Positions 1,062 through 6,261 of a DNA stretch of 6,542 nucleotides are shown here, piece after piece. This DNA comes from Actinomycetota bacterium (lineage in GTDB: Bacteria > Actinomycetota > Acidimicrobiia > Acidimicrobiales > Ilumatobacteraceae), in the NCBI GenBank assembly GCA_009701105.1, contig WLKU01000076.1:1-6542 (forward strand). Direction: 5' to 3'. The number at the start of each line of letters is the position of its first letter. The first letter of the stretch is position 1. The notes under the pieces were generated by a model. It had not been told where the DNA came from, did no database searches, and saw nothing but the letters and a program-made list of their open reading frames with translations. Made by a program: the position numbers and the translations under genes.

Positions 1062-1600
1062 TATTGCTCCGTTTGCTGTGAGGTTGGAAGGGTGGTAAAG
1101 ACAATGACTGCAAGAAAACCCGTGAAAGCCATGAATGGCAACGTTACAAAACCAAAGAGTTCGAACCAAACAAACTCACATGGCACTTTGACATCGCACA
1201 CGCCAGCGTCGAGGTTTGGAAAACGCTCCAAAAACCAATGGTAAGCCGAAATTCCGCAACCGATTGTGGCGAGTGGAACAGTAATTTTCCAGATGCTTTT
1301 GGTGCGGCGGATCAACGTGATGATCAGAACGATTGCGAGCGGATACATCATGAAACGCTGAAACCAGCACAAGCGACACGGCTTGTAGTTGACGATTTCC
1401 GAAAAGTACAAACTGCCGAGCATGCAAGTGGTTGCAACAGCGGCGGCGAGTGGTCGTGCAAATGGAGAAAAGGCCGTGAGGGTGTTTTGAGCCCACGATT
1501 GTGAACCAGCCAACAAACGAGCGACGAGCACGACAACTGTTCCCACAAGGAGTGCCACGCTGAGCATGGCAAAAAACATTTCAAATGTCTCGTTATTCAT
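1061..1600 (-). CDS. dsbB: DsbB/BdbC-family disulfide bond formation protein
   Basis: A 179-residue polytopic membrane protein that would reoxidise a DsbA-like partner and pass electrons to quinone. Hydrophobic segments lie at about 6-30, 52-70, 83-98, 106-122 and 148-170. The first redox pair is PCRLCWFQR with Cys75 and Cys78 just after a helix, followed by the conserved Trp-Phe-Gln-Arg. The second pair, Cys135 and Cys141, sits in the following outer loop (VCDVKVPC). These four cysteines are the defining DsbB features. One more N-terminal helix than the four of E. coli DsbB is predicted. The start at ATG 1600 (MNNETFEMFF) is preferred over the open extension to 1723, which would run back through the yqeY start region. 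The stop overlaps the thioredoxin gene start by one base, so the two form an operon. A TAGACT -10-like element at 1615-1610 lies 9 bp before the ATG. Confidence 0.92.
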   Translation of the reverse strand: MNNETFEMFFAMLSVALLVGTVVVLVARLLAGSQSWAQNTLTAFSPFARPLAAAVATTCMLGSLYFSEIVNYKPCRLCWFQRFMMYPLAIVLIITLIRRTKSIWKITVPLATIGCGISAYHWFLERFPNLDAGVCDVKVPCEFVWFELFGFVTLPFMAFTGFLAVIVFTTLPTSQQTEQ

Positions 1601-1625
1601 GGCTCGTAACAGTCTAGAGATCGGG

Positions 1626-1631
1626 CAGAAT
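1626..1631 (+). promoter_or_regulatory. Possible -10 element for leaderless yqeY
   Basis: CAGAAT (4 of 6 matches to TATAAT; fits the actinobacterial A-N-N-N-T core) ends 6 bp before the GTG at 1638, so transcription would begin at or next to the start codon. No good -35 is visible. The assignment leans on the same geometry recurring at 4829, 5899 and 6325. Confidence 0.4.
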
Positions 1632-1637
1632 AGAAGG

Positions 1638-2102
1638 GTGACAACATTTAAAGAACGCATTAAAGCCGATATCAGCGAAGCAATGAAGGCGCGTGACGAG
1701 TTGAGACTTTCGACACTGCGCATGGTGTTGTCGGCAATTCAAAATGCCGAGGTAGCTGGCGACGAGGCGATTGTGTTGAGCGATGATCAAGCACTTGCGG
1801 TTTTACGCGCTGAATCAAAAAAGCGCGCTGAAAGCGCGCAGATCTATGCAGACGCCGGTCGTACGGATGCAGCAACAAAAGAGCGCGCTGAATGTGCAGT
1901 GATCGAGGCATACCTGCCGGCAGCGATGTCGGATGACGATGTTGCAAAGATCGTTGCAGAGGAAGTTGCCAATGCTGCAGCCGCTGGTGCAACTGGTGGC
2001 AAAGCCATGGGTGCAGTGGTGAAAGCGGTGCGCGAACGAGTTGGGTCTGGTGCCGACGGCCAAAAAATTGCTGCACTTGTCAAATCGGCACTCGGTTCTT
2101 GA
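1638..2102 (+). CDS. yqeY: GatB/YqeY domain-containing protein
   Basis: A 154-residue soluble, helical protein of the YqeY family, related to the C-terminal tRNA-binding-like domain of GatB (amidotransferase subunit). The family function as a stand-alone protein is not settled; a tRNA-linked role is presumed. Seen: the opening FKERIKADISEAMKARDELR followed by STLRMVLSAIQNAE, the central EAYLPAAMSDDDV, and the glycine-rich GATGGKAMGAVVKAV near residues 120-135, all typical of the family. The GTG at 1638 gives the usual family length of about 150 residues. The longer ATG options at 1566 and 1599 add sequence unlike the family and invade dsbB. The purine run AGAAGG sits directly against the GTG, too close to be a ribosome site, which supports leaderless initiation. 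It is divergent from dsbB with 37 bp between starts and is followed after 49 bp by the glycosyltransferase-methyltransferase gene. Confidence 0.92.
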   Translation: MTTFKERIKADISEAMKARDELRLSTLRMVLSAIQNAEVAGDEAIVLSDDQALAVLRAESKKRAESAQIYADAGRTDAATKERAECAVIEAYLPAAMSDDDVAKIVAEEVANAAAAGATGGKAMGAVVKAVRERVGSGADGQKIAALVKSALGS

Positions 2103-2151
2103 GACGACTCACCAACAAATGGATATAGATCAACAGCTGAGTGAAGACCAC

Positions 2152-3666
2152 ATGGGCAAGAAGGGCATAATTCTTCTTGCGACTCTTGGCGAGCGCCAAA
2201 CAATTCGTTATGTACTAGAAGAAGTCGCAGAAAGCATTCGCACACTAGGCGCATCACAACATCAACTTGATGTGCTGATAGTCGATGACTCGCGAGATAC
2301 AGAATTTAATGAGCACGTGGCAGAAGTGTTCGGTACTCTCGGAATTCGCGGAAAGGTCATTGATGGCCCACACCGAGGACTCGGCGCCGCAATTTTGCAT
2401 GGCTTTGATGCTGCACTTCAAGATCAAGATGTTTCATATGTTGTCAATCTGGATGCCGATGGACAGCACGACGCGCGACAGATGCCAGACCTTGTGCGAT
2501 CACATTTTGTAACCAAGAGTTTGATCACGATCGGTTCGCGCTGGACGAAAGGTGGGTCGGCTCCGGGGCTGACATGGCAGCGAAAAATCCTTTCTCGTGT
2601 TTCAGCGATCATGTTGCACCGTGTTGGTGTTCCGTCTGCGATCAAAGATCCAACAACAAGTTTCCGTGTCTACAGCAGGCAGGCCTTGGAGTTGTCGTGT
2701 CGTGAAGTGATTGATTTCAGTGGCTATGCATTCTTTGGCGGAATCATCGCAGTCGCGGCAAGTCAAGGTCTCAAAATCACTGAAGTTCCAATTCACTTTC
2801 GTCCACGATTGGGCGGGGAATCGAAAATGCAATTGACTCGCATCGCAGAGACAGCTGGTCAGTTGTGGTCGATCTCATCGCGTGCTGAAATGTTGCGACG
2901 TCGTCGATCCATCGCCTTGAAGTTTGGTGGAAGCGGTCATACCGATGCATCTGGTGTAATCAAAGATCATGATGTGATGGTTTGTGCAGAAGCAAAAACT
3001 GCGAAACACTTGGTCACTCACCTCAGCAGTTATTTGACAGGTGACGTGCTCGATGTAGGAGCCGGATCTGGGTCTTTTAGCGGACACATTGCCGATGTTG
3101 CACACGAATTGACCTGTATCGAACCTGTCGAGACATATTTTGTAGAGCTAAAACAGAAGATTTCCGGACTGTCCAATGCGCAGGTTTTCTTCGGAACTCT
3201 CCAAGATTTTTCTCAGCAGCAGAGCTCACCATCGGGTACCAAAAAATTTGATGCCGTCTTTTATGCGCATGTTGTCGAACACATCCATAGTGATGTTGAA
3301 GAATTGGTGCGAGCACGCAAGCAGTTAAAGCATGATGGTCGAGCGATCATCGTGGTGCCGAGTTTGCCAAGGCTGTACGGATCGGTCGATTCGTTGTCTG
3401 GTCACTTCCGACGCTTCACTCGGCGCGAATTGATTGCGGTGGCCAATGCAGCAGGTTTTGAAGTCGAGTCCATTCGTTACTTCAACCCACTCGCAATTTT
3501 GCCGTATTGGTTGTTGTACCGAGTTGTGGGCGTTAAGTCGGTGAGTTCTGGCCAACTCGGGTTTTATGACCGCGCGATTGTGCCGTTGGCTTACAAAATT
3601 ATTGGTCTTTTTGGCGGAAAAATTCCTGGCATTAACTTGATCGCGATTCTAAAAAACCCACAATAG
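2152..3666 (+). CDS. Bifunctional GT2 glycosyltransferase / class I SAM-dependent methyltransferase
   Basis: A 504-residue two-domain protein. Residues 1-250 form a GT-A glycosyltransferase resembling dolichol/polyprenol-phosphate mannose synthase: VLIVDDS (41-47), the metal-binding DAD with GQHD (101-107), IGSRWTKGG (127-135), and DPTTSFRVYSRQ (166-177). Residues about 285-504 form a Rossmann methyltransferase: SAM-binding VLDVGAGSGSF (299-309), acidic CIEP (322-325), FDAVFYAHVVEHI (367-378 region), and the hydrophobic C-terminal region common in these enzymes. The GT domain lacks multi-pass membrane helices, so it is probably cytoplasmic or membrane-associated. It likely transfers a sugar from a nucleotide donor to polyprenol phosphate or an envelope acceptor and methylates a product, but neither substrate is evident. 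The opening is TLGER where family members usually have TYNER. ATG 2152 is chosen because TGAAG lies 5 bp upstream and the GT strand begins at once; ATG 2119 would add 11 residues and has no ribosome site. The downstream GNAT gene follows after 8 bp. Confidence 0.9.
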   Translation: MGKKGIILLATLGERQTIRYVLEEVAESIRTLGASQHQLDVLIVDDSRDTEFNEHVAEVFGTLGIRGKVIDGPHRGLGAAILHGFDAALQDQDVSYVVNLDADGQHDARQMPDLVRSHFVTKSLITIGSRWTKGGSAPGLTWQRKILSRVSAIMLHRVGVPSAIKDPTTSFRVYSRQALELSCREVIDFSGYAFFGGIIAVAASQGLKITEVPIHFRPRLGGESKMQLTRIAETAGQLWSISSRAEMLRRRRSIALKFGGSGHTDASGVIKDHDVMVCAEAKTAKHLVTHLSSYLTGDVLDVGAGSGSFSGHIADVAHELTCIEPVETYFVELKQKISGLSNAQVFFGTLQDFSQQQSSPSGTKKFDAVFYAHVVEHIHSDVEELVRARKQLKHDGRAIIVVPSLPRLYGSVDSLSGHFRRFTRRELIAVANAAGFEVESIRYFNPLAILPYWLLYRVVGVKSVSSGQLGFYDRAIVPLAYKIIGLFGGKIPGINLIAILKNPQ

Positions 3667-3674
3667 TTTTCACA

Positions 3675-4649
3675 ATGGATTCGTTCAACATGCGCGCTGC
3701 GCAATCAGCCGACATAGCGAATATCGCTGGTCTCCTCAACGAAGTTTTCGCCTATGACGGAATTCCAATTGTGCAAACGGTTGTGGAGCTAGAAGAAGAA
3801 TTTGTTGCACCATGCTGCACCATTGAGAACGACGTAATGGTGGTGCAATTGGATGAAAAACTAATTGGTGTTACCTGGACCTACTTTCTTCCTTCGGAAT
3901 CCAAAGAAGAGCGTTGCTACATTTTTGGAGGAGTGTTGCCTGAGTTTCGCCAACAAGGTGTTGGCACAGAATTAATGACGTGGGCGGTGCAGCACGGTGA
4001 ATCGTTGTTGCGGTCAACTGGTCGCACGCTTCCCAAATATTTGCGAGCGAGTGTAAGCCAGCAAAATGAATCCGCCTCACGGTTATTTGGGCATTTTGAA
4101 ATGAAGCCGGTCCGTTTTGAAGAAGACCTAATTCGCAATCTCGCAAATCTTCCAGAAGAAAACAAGAATCCAAAATATTCGATCGTTCCTTGGGATTCGG
4201 CTCGCAATGAAGAAGCACGAAGCGTGAAAAATCTCGCATTTCAAGATCACTGGGGCTCGACACCGAACAGTAGCGAGCTATGGCTTCAGATGGTCAATGG
4301 TTCAACTGCTCGACTGGATCATTCGTTTTTTGCAGTTAACCAGCAACAGGAAATTGTCGGACTGTTATTGACGCATCGGTACGAGTCGGACGACGAACTA
4401 TTGGGTAAGAGAATCGGTTGGATCGACAAGCTGGCGACTTTGGCCGAACACCGAAAGCAATCGATTGCAAAAAATTTGATTGCTCATGCACTGCATTCGT
4501 ATAAGAAAGATGGCCTCACGCATGCTGCGTTGAGTGTTGATACCCAAAATCCAACTGGTGCTTACGGACTTTATGCATCCCTGGGATTTGAGTTGTATAG
4601 AGGAACCGTTACGTACGAACGGCAGATCAATCCAGTGCCCTCGGCATGA
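3675..4649 (+). CDS. Tandem GNAT-family N-acetyltransferase (MshD-like architecture)
   Basis: A 324-residue protein with two GNAT domains. Domain 1 (about 5-155) carries the acetyl-CoA loop RQQGVG at 92-97 in GGVLPEFRQQGVGTELMTWA, then ASVSQQNESASRLFGHFEM. Domain 2 (about 168-315) has the strand-loop LATLAEHRKQSIAKNL at 253-268, where the usual glycines of R-x-x-G-x-G/A are replaced by Ser and Ala, and ends in SVDTQNPTGAYGLYASLGFELYRG, typical of GNAT C-termini. Length and double-domain plan recall mycothiol synthase MshD and its relatives, but specific identity is not secure, so no symbol is given. Only domain 1 looks fully equipped for CoA binding. The ATG lies 8 bp after the previous stop, so it is probably cotranscribed with it; no clear Shine-Dalgarno is seen. 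The last five residues (PVPSA) and the stop codon are written by the first copy of the tRNA-derived repeat starting at 4632, so the native C-terminus has probably been replaced. Confidence 0.88.
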   Translation: MDSFNMRAAQSADIANIAGLLNEVFAYDGIPIVQTVVELEEEFVAPCCTIENDVMVVQLDEKLIGVTWTYFLPSESKEERCYIFGGVLPEFRQQGVGTELMTWAVQHGESLLRSTGRTLPKYLRASVSQQNESASRLFGHFEMKPVRFEEDLIRNLANLPEENKNPKYSIVPWDSARNEEARSVKNLAFQDHWGSTPNSSELWLQMVNGSTARLDHSFFAVNQQQEIVGLLLTHRYESDDELLGKRIGWIDKLATLAEHRKQSIAKNLIAHALHSYKKDGLTHAALSVDTQNPTGAYGLYASLGFELYRGTVTYERQINPVPSA

Positions 4650-4687
4650 CCCAGTGCCCTCGGCATGACCCAGTGCCCTCGGCATGA
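4632..4687. repeat. Tandem direct repeat made of the tRNA-Arg 3' end (three copies, 19-bp period)
   Basis: The 18-bp unit CCAGTGCCCTCGGCATGA occurs at 4632-4649, 4651-4668 and 4670-4687, the first two each followed by one extra C. Read on the minus strand, the unit is the end of the T loop, the 3' strand of the T stem, the acceptor 3' strand CGAGGGC, the discriminator A and the flank CTGG. The third copy is inside the intact tRNA; the other two are extra. Such 3'-end duplicates are the usual footprint left by site-specific integration into tRNA genes, though replication slippage could also produce a perfect short tandem array. Confidence 0.95.
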
Positions 4688-4746
4688 ATCGAACATGCGA
4701 CCTGCGGTTCCGGAAACCGATGCTCTATCCACTGAGCTACGAGGGC
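4674..4746 (-). tRNA. tRNA-Arg (anticodon CCG)
   Basis: A full 73-nt cloverleaf on the minus strand. The acceptor stem GCCCTCG pairs perfectly with CGAGGGC, with discriminator A. The D stem is GCTC/GAGC with loop AGTGGATA. The anticodon arm is TCGGT-TTCCGGA-ACCGC, putting CCG at positions 34-36 (window 4713-4711), which reads CGG arginine codons. The variable loop is AGGTC, and the T stem GCATG/CATGC carries loop TTCGATT. The outermost anticodon-stem pair 27-43 is a U-C mismatch. CCA is not encoded (CTG follows the discriminator). The gene is convergent with the acetyltransferase gene and its 3' end is duplicated in tandem just downstream. Confidence 0.97.
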
Positions 4747-4756
4747 AGTAGTTGAG

Positions 4757-4786
4757 AGGGTATCTTGAATTCGCCGTAGCTTTCAA
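4757..4786 (-). promoter_or_regulatory. Predicted promoter of tRNA-Arg
   Basis: On the minus strand, TTGAAA (4786-4781; 5 of 6 to TTGACA) is followed after 18 bp by TACCCT (4762-4757; fits TANNNT). A start near 4750 would leave a 5' leader of only a few bases before the tRNA. Confidence 0.55.
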
Positions 4787-4813
4787 ACTGTACTCGGCTC
4801 TCGTTGAAAGTTG

Positions 4814-4822
4814 TGCTAGAAC
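4814..4822 (+). promoter_or_regulatory. Extended -10 promoter of the YHYH gene
   Basis: TGCTAGAAC combines the extended TGn motif with a -10-like TAGAAC (4817-4822). The hexamer ends 6 bp before the GTG at 4829, so the mRNA is predicted to be leaderless. No Shine-Dalgarno is present in the preceding 20 bp. It sits back to back with the tRNA promoter in an 82-bp gap. Confidence 0.5.
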
Positions 4823-4828
4823 TTTGTA

Positions 4829-5872
4829 GTGAAGAATCGCCTGTGGTTAATCGCTCTCGCATTGATTGGGACGATTGTGGTACCACCACAGAATGTGTCG
4901 GCAAAACCACAGGCGCTTCCGAAGTGCCCTTCGGTGAATTTTTTGAATCTATCGAAGTCGGTTGGTGCCGGCTCGGGTTATGCAAAACCATCTCAGAAAA
5001 TTGTGTGTTCTACTGGTGAAGTTGTTGTCACAACAAACAACATGATTAGTTTTCCATTCACTCAATTGACACCGCATCCGTTGAGTCCACAAACCTTGAC
5101 CATAAAGTTTCCACGCTCGCCGAAGGTTGCTGCCACACCGACCAATGTTGTGAATATGCTTGGCACGGCCGGTGTGTCGGTGTCTGGTCTCTTGATCTAT
5201 CCGATTACTGAAGGAGCAATTCCGGTCGAATCTGCATTTGGTGATCCGTACTACAACAAGATGTTGGATACCTGTGGTGGACACACTGGCCCCGCAAGCG
5301 AATATCACTATCACGTGCTTATGACTATTGCGATTTGTAATTTGAAAAACACTTCTATCCTCGGATATGCGATTGACGGATTTCCTATCTATGGTCCAAC
5401 TGGCTGTCTCAATGTGAAGTGCACGAAGAAAGCGGCCATGAAGTCTGGATATGTGCAGATTGGTAATCCTCAAAAGAACGTGTGGAATGCTTACAAATAC
5501 AGTGCAACACCAAGCACAACTGTGCTGGACGAATGCAACGGACGAGTACAGCCCGATGGAACATATGGCTATCACGCGACACTTTCTTTTCCTTACATAT
5601 TTGGTTGCTTTAAAGGCACACCAACCACGCAAACTGGCGGGGCAGCTGCGCCGATGACGATGGGTGGAAGCAGTGGTCAGCCTCCAGCCGGTAGTTCGCC
5701 TCCAGCAGGTAGTTCGCCTCCAGCAGGTAGTCAGCCTCCAGCAGGAGGTGCACCGCCAGTAGGTGGTCCACCACCTTCCACGACGATAAAGGCCAGCTGG
5801 ATCGAACCGTTATCGATACAAGACGTCACGTCGTTGTATTGCAACCTGTCGCTCAGTTACCAAGTTCGTTAA
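4829..5872 (+). CDS. Secreted YHYH-domain protein with Pro-rich repeat tail
   Basis: A 347-residue exported protein. The start MKNRLWLIALALIGTIVV is a signal peptide, with probable cleavage after VSA at 23-25. The body is a YHYH domain, shown by YNKMLDTCGGHTG (142-154), the name-giving YHYH at 159-162, GYAIDGFPIYG (179-189), LDECNGR (233-239) and YGYHATLSFPYIFGCFKG (246-263). The biochemical role of the domain is not established; members are extracytoplasmic and often occur beside other secreted proteins. Residues 285-317 are about 5.5 copies of a PPAGSS-like hexapeptide. The last 30 residues resemble nothing I recognise. The mature protein has nine cysteines: eight in the domain body and one (Cys338) in that tail. 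An even set fits disulfide bonding, perhaps by the DsbB/thioredoxin-like pair encoded nearby. GTG 4829 is chosen because the signal peptide begins there and no upstream in-frame start fits. Confidence 0.88.
   Translation: MKNRLWLIALALIGTIVVPPQNVSAKPQALPKCPSVNFLNLSKSVGAGSGYAKPSQKIVCSTGEVVVTTNNMISFPFTQLTPHPLSPQTLTIKFPRSPKVAATPTNVVNMLGTAGVSVSGLLIYPITEGAIPVESAFGDPYYNKMLDTCGGHTGPASEYHYHVLMTIAICNLKNTSILGYAIDGFPIYGPTGCLNVKCTKKAAMKSGYVQIGNPQKNVWNAYKYSATPSTTVLDECNGRVQPDGTYGYHATLSFPYIFGCFKGTPTTQTGGAAAPMTMGGSSGQPPAGSSPPAGSSPPAGSQPPAGGAPPVGGPPPSTTIKASWIEPLSIQDVTSLYCNLSLSYQVR
5681..5779 (+). repeat. 18-bp coding repeat (PPAGSS-type hexapeptide)
   Basis: About 5.5 in-frame units of 18 bp, the first four beginning CCTCCAGC and the last two diverged (CCGCCAGTAGGT, CCACCACCT). 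They encode PPAGSS, PPAGSS, PPAGSQ, PPAGGA, PPVGGP and PPS. The graded divergence from left to right suggests growth by slippage at the left end. It forms a flexible linker after the YHYH domain. Confidence 0.85.
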
Positions 5873-5874
5873 GA

Positions 5875-5897
5875 CGCCAACTGTCGTAGTGTTGGCG
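5875..5897. promoter_or_regulatory. Inverted repeat between YHYH gene and yjdM (operator or weak terminator)
   Basis: CGCCAAC (5875-5881) and GTTGGCG (5891-5897) form a perfect 7-bp inverted repeat with a 9-base loop, beginning 2 bp after the YHYH stop codon and ending 1 bp before the yjdM ATG. No T-run follows, so it is not a standard intrinsic terminator. The right arm overlaps the predicted yjdM -10, so a dimeric regulator or simple transcript end processing are both possible. Confidence 0.45.
5887..5892 (+). promoter_or_regulatory. Predicted -10 element of yjdM
   Basis: TAGTGT fits TANNNT and ends 6 bp before the ATG at 5899. No convincing -35 or Shine-Dalgarno is visible. It lies in the loop and right arm of the inverted repeat at 5875-5897. 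Confidence 0.45.
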
Positions 5898-5898
5898 A

Positions 5899-6261
5899 AT
5901 GAGTGAACTTTCGCCGTGTCCGAAATGTGCGTGTGTCTATACATATGAATTAGGCAACATGCTCGCGTGTCCAGAATGTGGGCATGAGTGGGCTGCTATT
6001 TCGACTGACCAAGAAGCGCCAGAGGGGGCGAGTGACGAACTCTCGGTAATTAAAGACACCGCGGGCAACATCTTGCAAGATGGTGACACGGTCACTGTGG
6101 TCAAAGATCTCAAGGTCAAGGGCAGACCAGTGTCGATCAAGGTGGGCACCAAAGTACGCAATATTCGCTTGGTGCGCGACAACGGAGATCATGACATTGA
6201 CTGCAAAGTAGACGGCTTTGGTGCGATGTACCTCAAATCAAGCGTTGTTAGGAAGGTCTAA
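5899..6261 (+). CDS. yjdM: PhnA/YjdM family zinc-ribbon protein
   Basis: A complete 120-residue cytoplasmic protein, close to the roughly 111 residues of E. coli YjdM (formerly PhnA). The N-terminal zinc ribbon has Cys7-x2-Cys10 and Cys24-x2-Cys27 (CPKC ... CPEC), with the family's VYTYELG between and GHEW after. The C-terminal SH3-like half carries the highly conserved [20 protein letters not shown] (about 51-70), LKVKG (71-75), [12 protein letters not shown] (81-92), [17 protein letters not shown] (98-114). The name refers to the phosphonate operon where it was first seen; no phosphonate genes are present here and the molecular function is unclear. The ATG at 5899 gives the family N-terminus. 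It starts 26 bp after the YHYH gene and appears to have its own promoter. Confidence 0.95.

What the first reader, a model, noticed from the sequence alone, without database searches (positions are those of the whole stretch)
4632..4746. tRNA-Arg(CCG) 3' end present in three tandem copies: attachment-site scar or slippage array
Seen directly: three perfect 18-bp copies with 19-bp period, the innermost being the real T-stem/acceptor 3' end of the tRNA. Known: tyrosine-recombinase elements use tRNA 3' ends as attB and restore the gene with a duplicated end, leaving direct repeats. Here the repeats are head to tail with only 1 bp between them, with no integrase or cargo. That may be the remnant of repeated integration/excision, an array of att half-sites, or slippage. 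The copies could also let the 5' acceptor strand pair with the wrong CGAGGGC in the pre-tRNA, affecting 3' processing.
Basis: partly seen in the sequence, partly recalled or inferred. Interest (0 to 1): 0.72.

Follow-up and report, generated by a model that had tools for sequence, protein, structure and literature searches.

The report
Tandem tRNA tail at insertion hotspot
Next to an arginine tRNA gene of a probable freshwater actinobacterium, the last 18 letters of the tRNA gene occur three times in a row, most likely through copying slippage, at a spot where related bacteria gain and lose small sets of genes; it is a neat local example of known processes rather than a new system.

Summary
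In detail: three perfect 18-bp copies, period 19 (4632-4687), the innermost being the 3' end of tRNA-Arg(CCG). Two processes are layered. (1) The tRNA 3' end is a real insertion site: 7 of 13 loci laid out carry extra genes between yqeY and the tRNA. L001 has a displaced 47-nt tRNA 3' half, a 2.03-kb one-gene insert and a regenerated tRNA; L135 and L136, 97-99% identical in flanking DNA, differ by a 2,028-bp insert with a homologous gene. (2) The array itself is best explained by tandem duplication: single-copy relative L134 has TGA at both unit ends, and tripling its unit in silico matches the window at 69 of 70 positions; the copies lack the anticodon region to which the L001 repeat extends. 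Copies: 1 (L134), 2 plus the displaced half (L001), 2 plus a stub (L133), 3 (window). The adjacent GNAT gene takes its stop codon from the outermost copy; in L134 that stop lies inside the tRNA, so duplication un-overlaps the genes. Analogues are in print (tRNA cassettes in Ca. Actinomarinales, tRNA-Lys 3'-end repeats in Methylophilaceae, E. coli tRNA-linked repeats). New member of a known kind; modest interest.

The parts
4632..4650 (-). outermost copy of the tRNA 3' end; holds the GNAT stop codon (4647-4649, plus strand)
4651..4669 (-). middle copy, identical over 19 bp
4670..4687 (-). innermost copy: 3' end of the real tRNA plus 3 bp of flank
4673..4746 (-). tRNA-Arg(CCG), no encoded CCA
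   Evidence: ARAGORN; Rfam; sequence
3675..4649 (+). GNAT acetyltransferase gene, 324 aa, ending PVPSA* inside the outermost copy; absent from this site in relatives without insert
2149..3666 (+). glycosyltransferase family 2 / methyltransferase fusion gene, inserted with GNAT between yqeY and the tRNA
1566..2102 (+). yqeY: ancestral left neighbour of the tRNA 3' end in relatives without insert (the start is mechanical; a later start is possible)
4829..5872 (+). YHYH-domain gene between the tRNA 5' end and the PhnA/YjdM gene; lies between the tRNA and phnA also in L001, not in L134
5899..6261 (+). PhnA/YjdM gene; present in L134, L001; argS follows directly in most other relatives

Best explanation
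The 3' end of tRNA-Arg(CCG) is an insertion hotspot of small gene cassettes in this bacterial family, and the three-copy array is a secondary local change at that hotspot. Inferred order: genes (GNAT, then a glycosyltransferase/methyltransferase) settled between yqeY and the tRNA; the GNAT reading frame came to end inside the tRNA gene, using its antisense strand for the last codons and stop (state seen in L134). A 19-bp stretch bounded by TGA at both ends then duplicated in tandem by replication slippage or unequal exchange, once and then again. This left the GNAT stop in an outer copy that no longer has to be tRNA, so both genes can change freely. Later events acted beside it: in L001 an element entered the real tRNA and displaced its 3' half; in L133 the two genes were lost up to the array. 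Shown: copies, copy-number differences, stop positions, TGA at both ends of the unit, the L001 displaced half, the L135/L136 presence/absence. Inferred: the order of events, slippage as the mechanism, and relief of overlap as a consequence (not shown to be selected).
For: Single-copy relative L134 reads TTGACCCAGTGCCCTCGGCATGAATC; tripling its 19-bp unit reproduces the window at 69 of 70 positions. Same junction in L133 and, with changes, in L001. Tree of YqeY+DsbB+TlpA: window with L133 (0.897), L134 next (0.987); L001 could not be placed, its contig lacks these genes. GNAT stop: inside the tRNA in L134, inside the outermost copy in the window. 73 of the 120 listed GNAT relatives (of 387 found) end in the same reading, 64 unchanged ([VL]PSA*) and 9 changed (VSSA*/VRSA*); a changed reading would not fit a functional acceptor stem, so it suggests a copy apart from the tRNA (DNA not seen except L001). 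Hotspot: 7 of 13 loci with an insert, six different gene sets; L135/L136. Displaced tRNA-Arg 3' pieces within 1.5 kb: 4 of 63 loci on the 3' side in the same orientation, 0 of 63 in each of three control placements.
Against: No reads, no strain series and no experiment: slippage is inferred from sequence. The window's own copy 1 no longer has the left TGA (it reads CAATCC), so the progenitor is assumed to have been like L134. No displaced tRNA piece was found at the yqeY end of the GT2/MT-GNAT segment in the window or L134, so how those genes came in is unknown. Of the 4 hits two are the array itself (window, L111) and one (L115) follows an NN gap in its contig.
Confidence: 0.7

Rival explanations
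1. The copies are real attachment-site remnants of the T-loop or T/acceptor-junction type: successive elements integrated at the tRNA 3' end, each leaving an 18-bp displaced piece, and their cargo was lost.
For: Insertion at this tRNA is real in relatives. Islander reports 1836 of 3919 islands with T-region crossovers (PMC4383910, passages), for which an 18-bp piece is the expected length. Methylophilaceae fGI-2 is preceded by repeats of the last 20 nt of tRNA-Lys in varying number (PMC10872708, passages).
Against: Two independent cargo losses would have to leave the same exact junction and 19-bp period; one duplication unit with TGA at both ends explains both. The one clear displaced piece at this tRNA is 47 nt and reaches the anticodon loop. 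No genome with cargo between 18-bp copies was found.
Confidence: 0.17
2. The array is a functional tRNA-linked repeat: the copies in the tRNA's 3' trailer act in 3' processing or give a small RNA.
For: E. coli tRNA-linked repeats share 18-19 bp with the 3' end of the upstream tRNA or rRNA, and three 5S-linked ones are processed RNAs (PMC8144298, passages). The 5' acceptor strand can pair with each copy in the thermodynamic ensemble (about 0.7, 0.1, 0.2).
Against: The array is not conserved: relatives have one copy, and 2 of 397 genomes matched the tandem pattern. Folding is no better than shuffles (z -0.77). No spacer RNA as in E. coli repeats, whose units are far longer (unit length recalled).
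Confidence: 0.08
3. Assembly artefact of a short repeat.
For: Short tandem repeats can be mis-assembled; the window is of unknown origin and no whole genome is held.
Against: Tandem copies with the same junction in two other assemblies, one with a changed base.
Confidence: 0.03

Closest known systems
Gene cassettes inserted at tRNAs (additive flexible genomic islands) of 'Ca. Actinomarinales', mSystems 2020, PMC7771536 (passages seen)
   Same: Actinobacteria with small genomes; [quoted passage not shown] same picture in L001.
   Different: There the repeats bound cassettes inside envelope-sugar islands; here the copies are head to tail, 19 bp apart, with nothing between them, and hold a protein stop codon.
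fGI-2 of Methylophilaceae with repeats of the last 20 nt of tRNA-Lys, ISME J 2024, PMC10872708 (passages seen)
   Same: Repeats of the tRNA 3' end, about 20 bp, in varying number, at an additive island of 330 bp to 42 kb.
   Different: Different phylum and tRNA; the passages do not say that the repeats are contiguous or how they arose.
E. coli tRNA-linked repeats (TLR), as described in PMC8144298 (passages seen)
   Same: 18-19 bp identical to the 3' end of the upstream tRNA, located downstream of it.
   Different: TLRs repeat a longer unit in operons and some give small RNAs; here the unit is 19 bp. Rfam found no TLR/RtT match in the window (E up to 1).
tRNA-targeted genomic islands as mapped by Islander, PMC4383910 (passages seen)
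   Same: L001: regenerated tRNA and displaced fragment in the same orientation mark the ends.
   Different: No integrase was found in the L001 insert, whose single long ORF matched no Pfam family; Islander requires one.

Membership tests
tRNA-targeted genomic island (Islander definition) | displaced fragment of the tRNA 3' part, same orientation, beyond the intact tRNA | tested here: inconclusive
   Window: two 18-bp pieces in the right orientation, but contiguous, so no island lies between. L001: met with a 47-nt piece.
tRNA-targeted genomic island (Islander definition) | integrase gene in the island | tested here: not met
   None among 15 of 24 window ORFs scanned; L001 insert ORF no Pfam family. 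A truncated Phage_integrase ORF lies beside a different tRNA-Arg, in L144.
tRNA gene cassette / additive flexible island | variable small gene sets at one tRNA in related genomes | tested here: met
   7 of 13 loci with insert, six gene sets; L135 against L136.
[quoted passage not shown]
   Not found at the yqeY side of the window, L134, L003, L135, L139 or L141 inserts; met only in L001 among the CCG loci.
E. coli-type tRNA-linked repeat (TLR) | 18-19 bp identical to the tRNA 3' end, downstream of it | tested here: met
E. coli-type tRNA-linked repeat (TLR) | longer transcribed repeat unit / match to known RNA family | tested here: not met
   Period 19; Rfam gave only tRNA and one sub-threshold plastid match. 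Transcription not testable.
slippage tandem duplication | unit bounded by a short direct repeat in a single-copy relative, identical junctions, varying copy number | tested here: met
   TGA at both ends in L134; 69 of 70; copies 1 to 3.

The most novel reading that the evidence does not exclude
A protein gene that settled at a tRNA captured the antisense strand of the tRNA 3' end as its own last codons and stop, was thereby locked to the tRNA, and was released when that tRNA end duplicated in tandem. Tandem tRNA-end copies would then be a recurrent route by which genes gained at tRNA hotspots become independent of the tRNA, kept by selection rather than by chance.
Probability: 0.2. Interest if true: 0.5.

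Novelty: new member of a known kind. Interest (0 to 1): 0.36.

Why it matters
Insertion of genes at tRNA 3' ends is known; what happens at the junction afterwards is seldom seen step by step. Here relatives show one, two and three copies, loss of the cargo, and a fresh insertion with a displaced tRNA half. The locus also shows a coding gene that ends inside a tRNA gene on the other strand and then loses that overlap through duplication. It gives a small, testable case of how cargo is domesticated at tRNA hotspots in streamlined aquatic actinobacteria.

Tried and rejected
Exact matches of the tandem unit or of the tRNA 3' half in viral contigs: 0 stretches each, so no phage attP was found there. 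GNAT relatives in viral contigs: none. Consensus promoters and terminators at 4500-4900: none found, as expected by chance. RNA structure of tRNA plus array: no better than shuffles. A displaced tRNA piece at the yqeY side of the window: only 9-13-nt chance-level matches. The Rfam hit RF04354 antisense to the tRNA is below its gathering score (26.5 against 65.7) and was dropped. Integrase search in 20 relatives: all 20 have PF00589 matches, 1 to 5 each, which by itself says nothing, as chromosomes normally carry Xer recombinases (recalled). Literature: search for 'stop codon' + 'overlaps the tRNA' + 'convergent' found 0 papers; a second search on overlap phrases found 25, of which I saw the listing of 15 and none described this case. 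I do not claim that none exists. More distant CCG loci (L146-L158, L173, L174), where yqeY was not found beside the tRNA, were not classified.

Full report
What is there. The window holds 2.9 perfect copies of CCAGTGCCCTCGGCATGAC at 4632-4687. The innermost copy is the 3' end of tRNA-Arg(CCG), 4673-4746 on the minus strand. The first and second copies are identical over 19 bp, the third over 18. The finding's description is correct.

What it sits in. The GNAT acetyltransferase gene (3675-4649, plus) ends ...PVPSA* with its stop TGA at 4647-4649, inside the outermost copy. Homologues were sought in the protein database: 387 found, 120 listed. Of the 120, 64 end [VL]PSA*, 9 end VSSA* or VRSA*, 47 end otherwise, some of them because the contig stops. 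Record titles of the nearest genome loci name Acidimicrobium sp., Ilumatobacteraceae and acIV bacteria; that the window is a freshwater acidimicrobiial genome is inferred from these.

Relatives at the same locus. I laid out 13 loci in which tRNA-Arg(CCG) is seen together with window genes: the window, L001, L003 and L133-L142. In six (L133, L136, L137, L138, L140, L142) yqeY and the tRNA are neighbours, and argS follows the tRNA on its 5' side; this is taken as ancestral. In seven there are extra genes at the tRNA 3' end: GT2/MT fusion plus GNAT (window, L134), GNAT alone (L003), GT2/MT plus GNAT plus a 662-aa predicted secreted protein (L001; its contig begins inside GT2/MT, so yqeY is not seen), the 662-aa homologue alone (L135), an FAD-dependent oxidoreductase (L139, 1,408 bp), and two ORFs without Pfam match (L141, 1,044 bp). 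A further contig, L179, has yqeY followed by the 662-aa homologue and ends there. The 662-aa protein is 89-90% identical between L001 and L135 while YqeY, DsbB and TlpA of L135 are 67-76% identical to those of the window, which points to transfer of that gene.

Proof of insertion. In L001 a 47-nt piece of the tRNA 3' half (1823-1869) lies 2,030 bp from its 96% identical match in the intact tRNA (3900-3946). The insert has one long ORF, no Pfam family. At the first variable base, the displaced half agrees with the tRNA of L134, L133 and the window, while the intact L001 tRNA differs, as expected if the element supplied the new half. Against this, the displaced half has also gained one change of its own. 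L135 and L136 are 98.5% identical over 1,709 bp to the left and 97.4% over 1,917 bp to the right, and differ by 2,028 bp exactly at the tRNA 3' end; identity on the left already breaks within the last bases of yqeY, which suggests that the allele moved by homologous recombination.

How general. In 63 distinct tRNA-Arg loci at hand, with up to 1.5 kb of flank (less where contigs end), a local match of score 13 or more to the tRNA's own 3' part occurs on the 3' side in the same orientation in 4 (window, L111, L095, L115) and in none of the three control placements. L001 lies beyond that range. L095, which is the G002 locus also held as L145, has a decayed piece about 240 bp from tRNA-Arg(CCT) with a small ORF between. 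L115 has one after about 820 bp, but directly behind an NN gap. L144 has a second, degenerate tRNA-Arg(CCT) 2.1 kb from the first, with a truncated Phage_integrase ORF between.

How the array arose. L134 has one copy, and its GNAT stop lies inside the tRNA (9570-9572 against tRNA 9558-9631). Its sequence has TGA on both sides of a 16-bp stretch. Repeating the 19-bp unit three times gives the window at 69 of 70 positions. The other tandem loci share the junction: L133 has two copies and a stub next to yqeY, without the GNAT and GT2/MT genes; L001 has a changed copy, then the displaced half. The tandem pattern matched only G185 (L133) and G001 (L001) among 397 genomes of the order. In the tree of YqeY, DsbB and TlpA the window groups with L133 (0.897) and L134 is next (0.987), so the array most simply arose after L134 branched off, and L133 then lost the two genes; no GNAT match was found in G185, whose completeness is not given. 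The window has lost the left TGA, so this rests on L134 standing for the ancestor.

Why attachment sites are less likely. The clear displaced piece at this tRNA is 47 nt long and ends at the anticodon loop. The 18-bp copies lack that part. Crossovers in the T region are common elsewhere (PMC4383910, passages), so this is an argument, not an exclusion.

Function. Nothing indicates a product: the fold is ordinary, the array is not conserved, no promoter or terminator consensus was seen. The 5' acceptor strand prefers the innermost copy in a simple model. The plausible consequence is that GNAT and the tRNA no longer share bases.

Known relatives. Ca. [quoted passage not shown] Methylophilaceae fGI-2 is preceded by repeats of the last 20 nt of tRNA-Lys in varying number (PMC10872708, passages). 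E. coli tRNA-linked repeats share 18-19 bp with the tRNA end (PMC8144298, passages). The present case belongs with these in kind. What it adds is the contiguous 19-bp array, the captured stop codon and the series of states among relatives.

Noticed in passing
L001 1905-3893; L135 1826-3727; L179: 662-aa predicted secreted protein, no Pfam family, with an HEIFH stretch that looks by eye like a zinc-protease HExxH motif (recalled motif); carried at the tRNA-Arg(CCG)/yqeY site in three genomes.
   Followed up: partly
L145 about 5771-6120 (same locus as L095): Decayed tRNA-Arg(CCT) 3' piece, a small ORF with MTCDHC (looks by eye like a metal-binding HMA protein), then the intact tRNA-Arg(CCT): a cassette of about 0.25 kb.
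   Followed up: partly
L144 730-2901: Two tRNA-Arg(CCT) genes 2.1 kb apart, the second with a mismatched 5' half, with a truncated Phage_integrase ORF and a 329-aa predicted secreted protein between them.
   Followed up: partly
window 5680-5772: 18-bp tandem repeats encoding a Pro/Gly/Ser-rich tail of the YHYH protein.
   Followed up: no
L133 around 6984-7020: Beside the two full copies, the stub could be a third copy missing seven bases of the acceptor part, directly after the yqeY stop.
   Followed up: no
L135 1690-1709 against L136: The last bases of yqeY differ between nearly identical genomes exactly where the insert allele differs, as if the cassette travelled with a piece of yqeY.
   Followed up: partly
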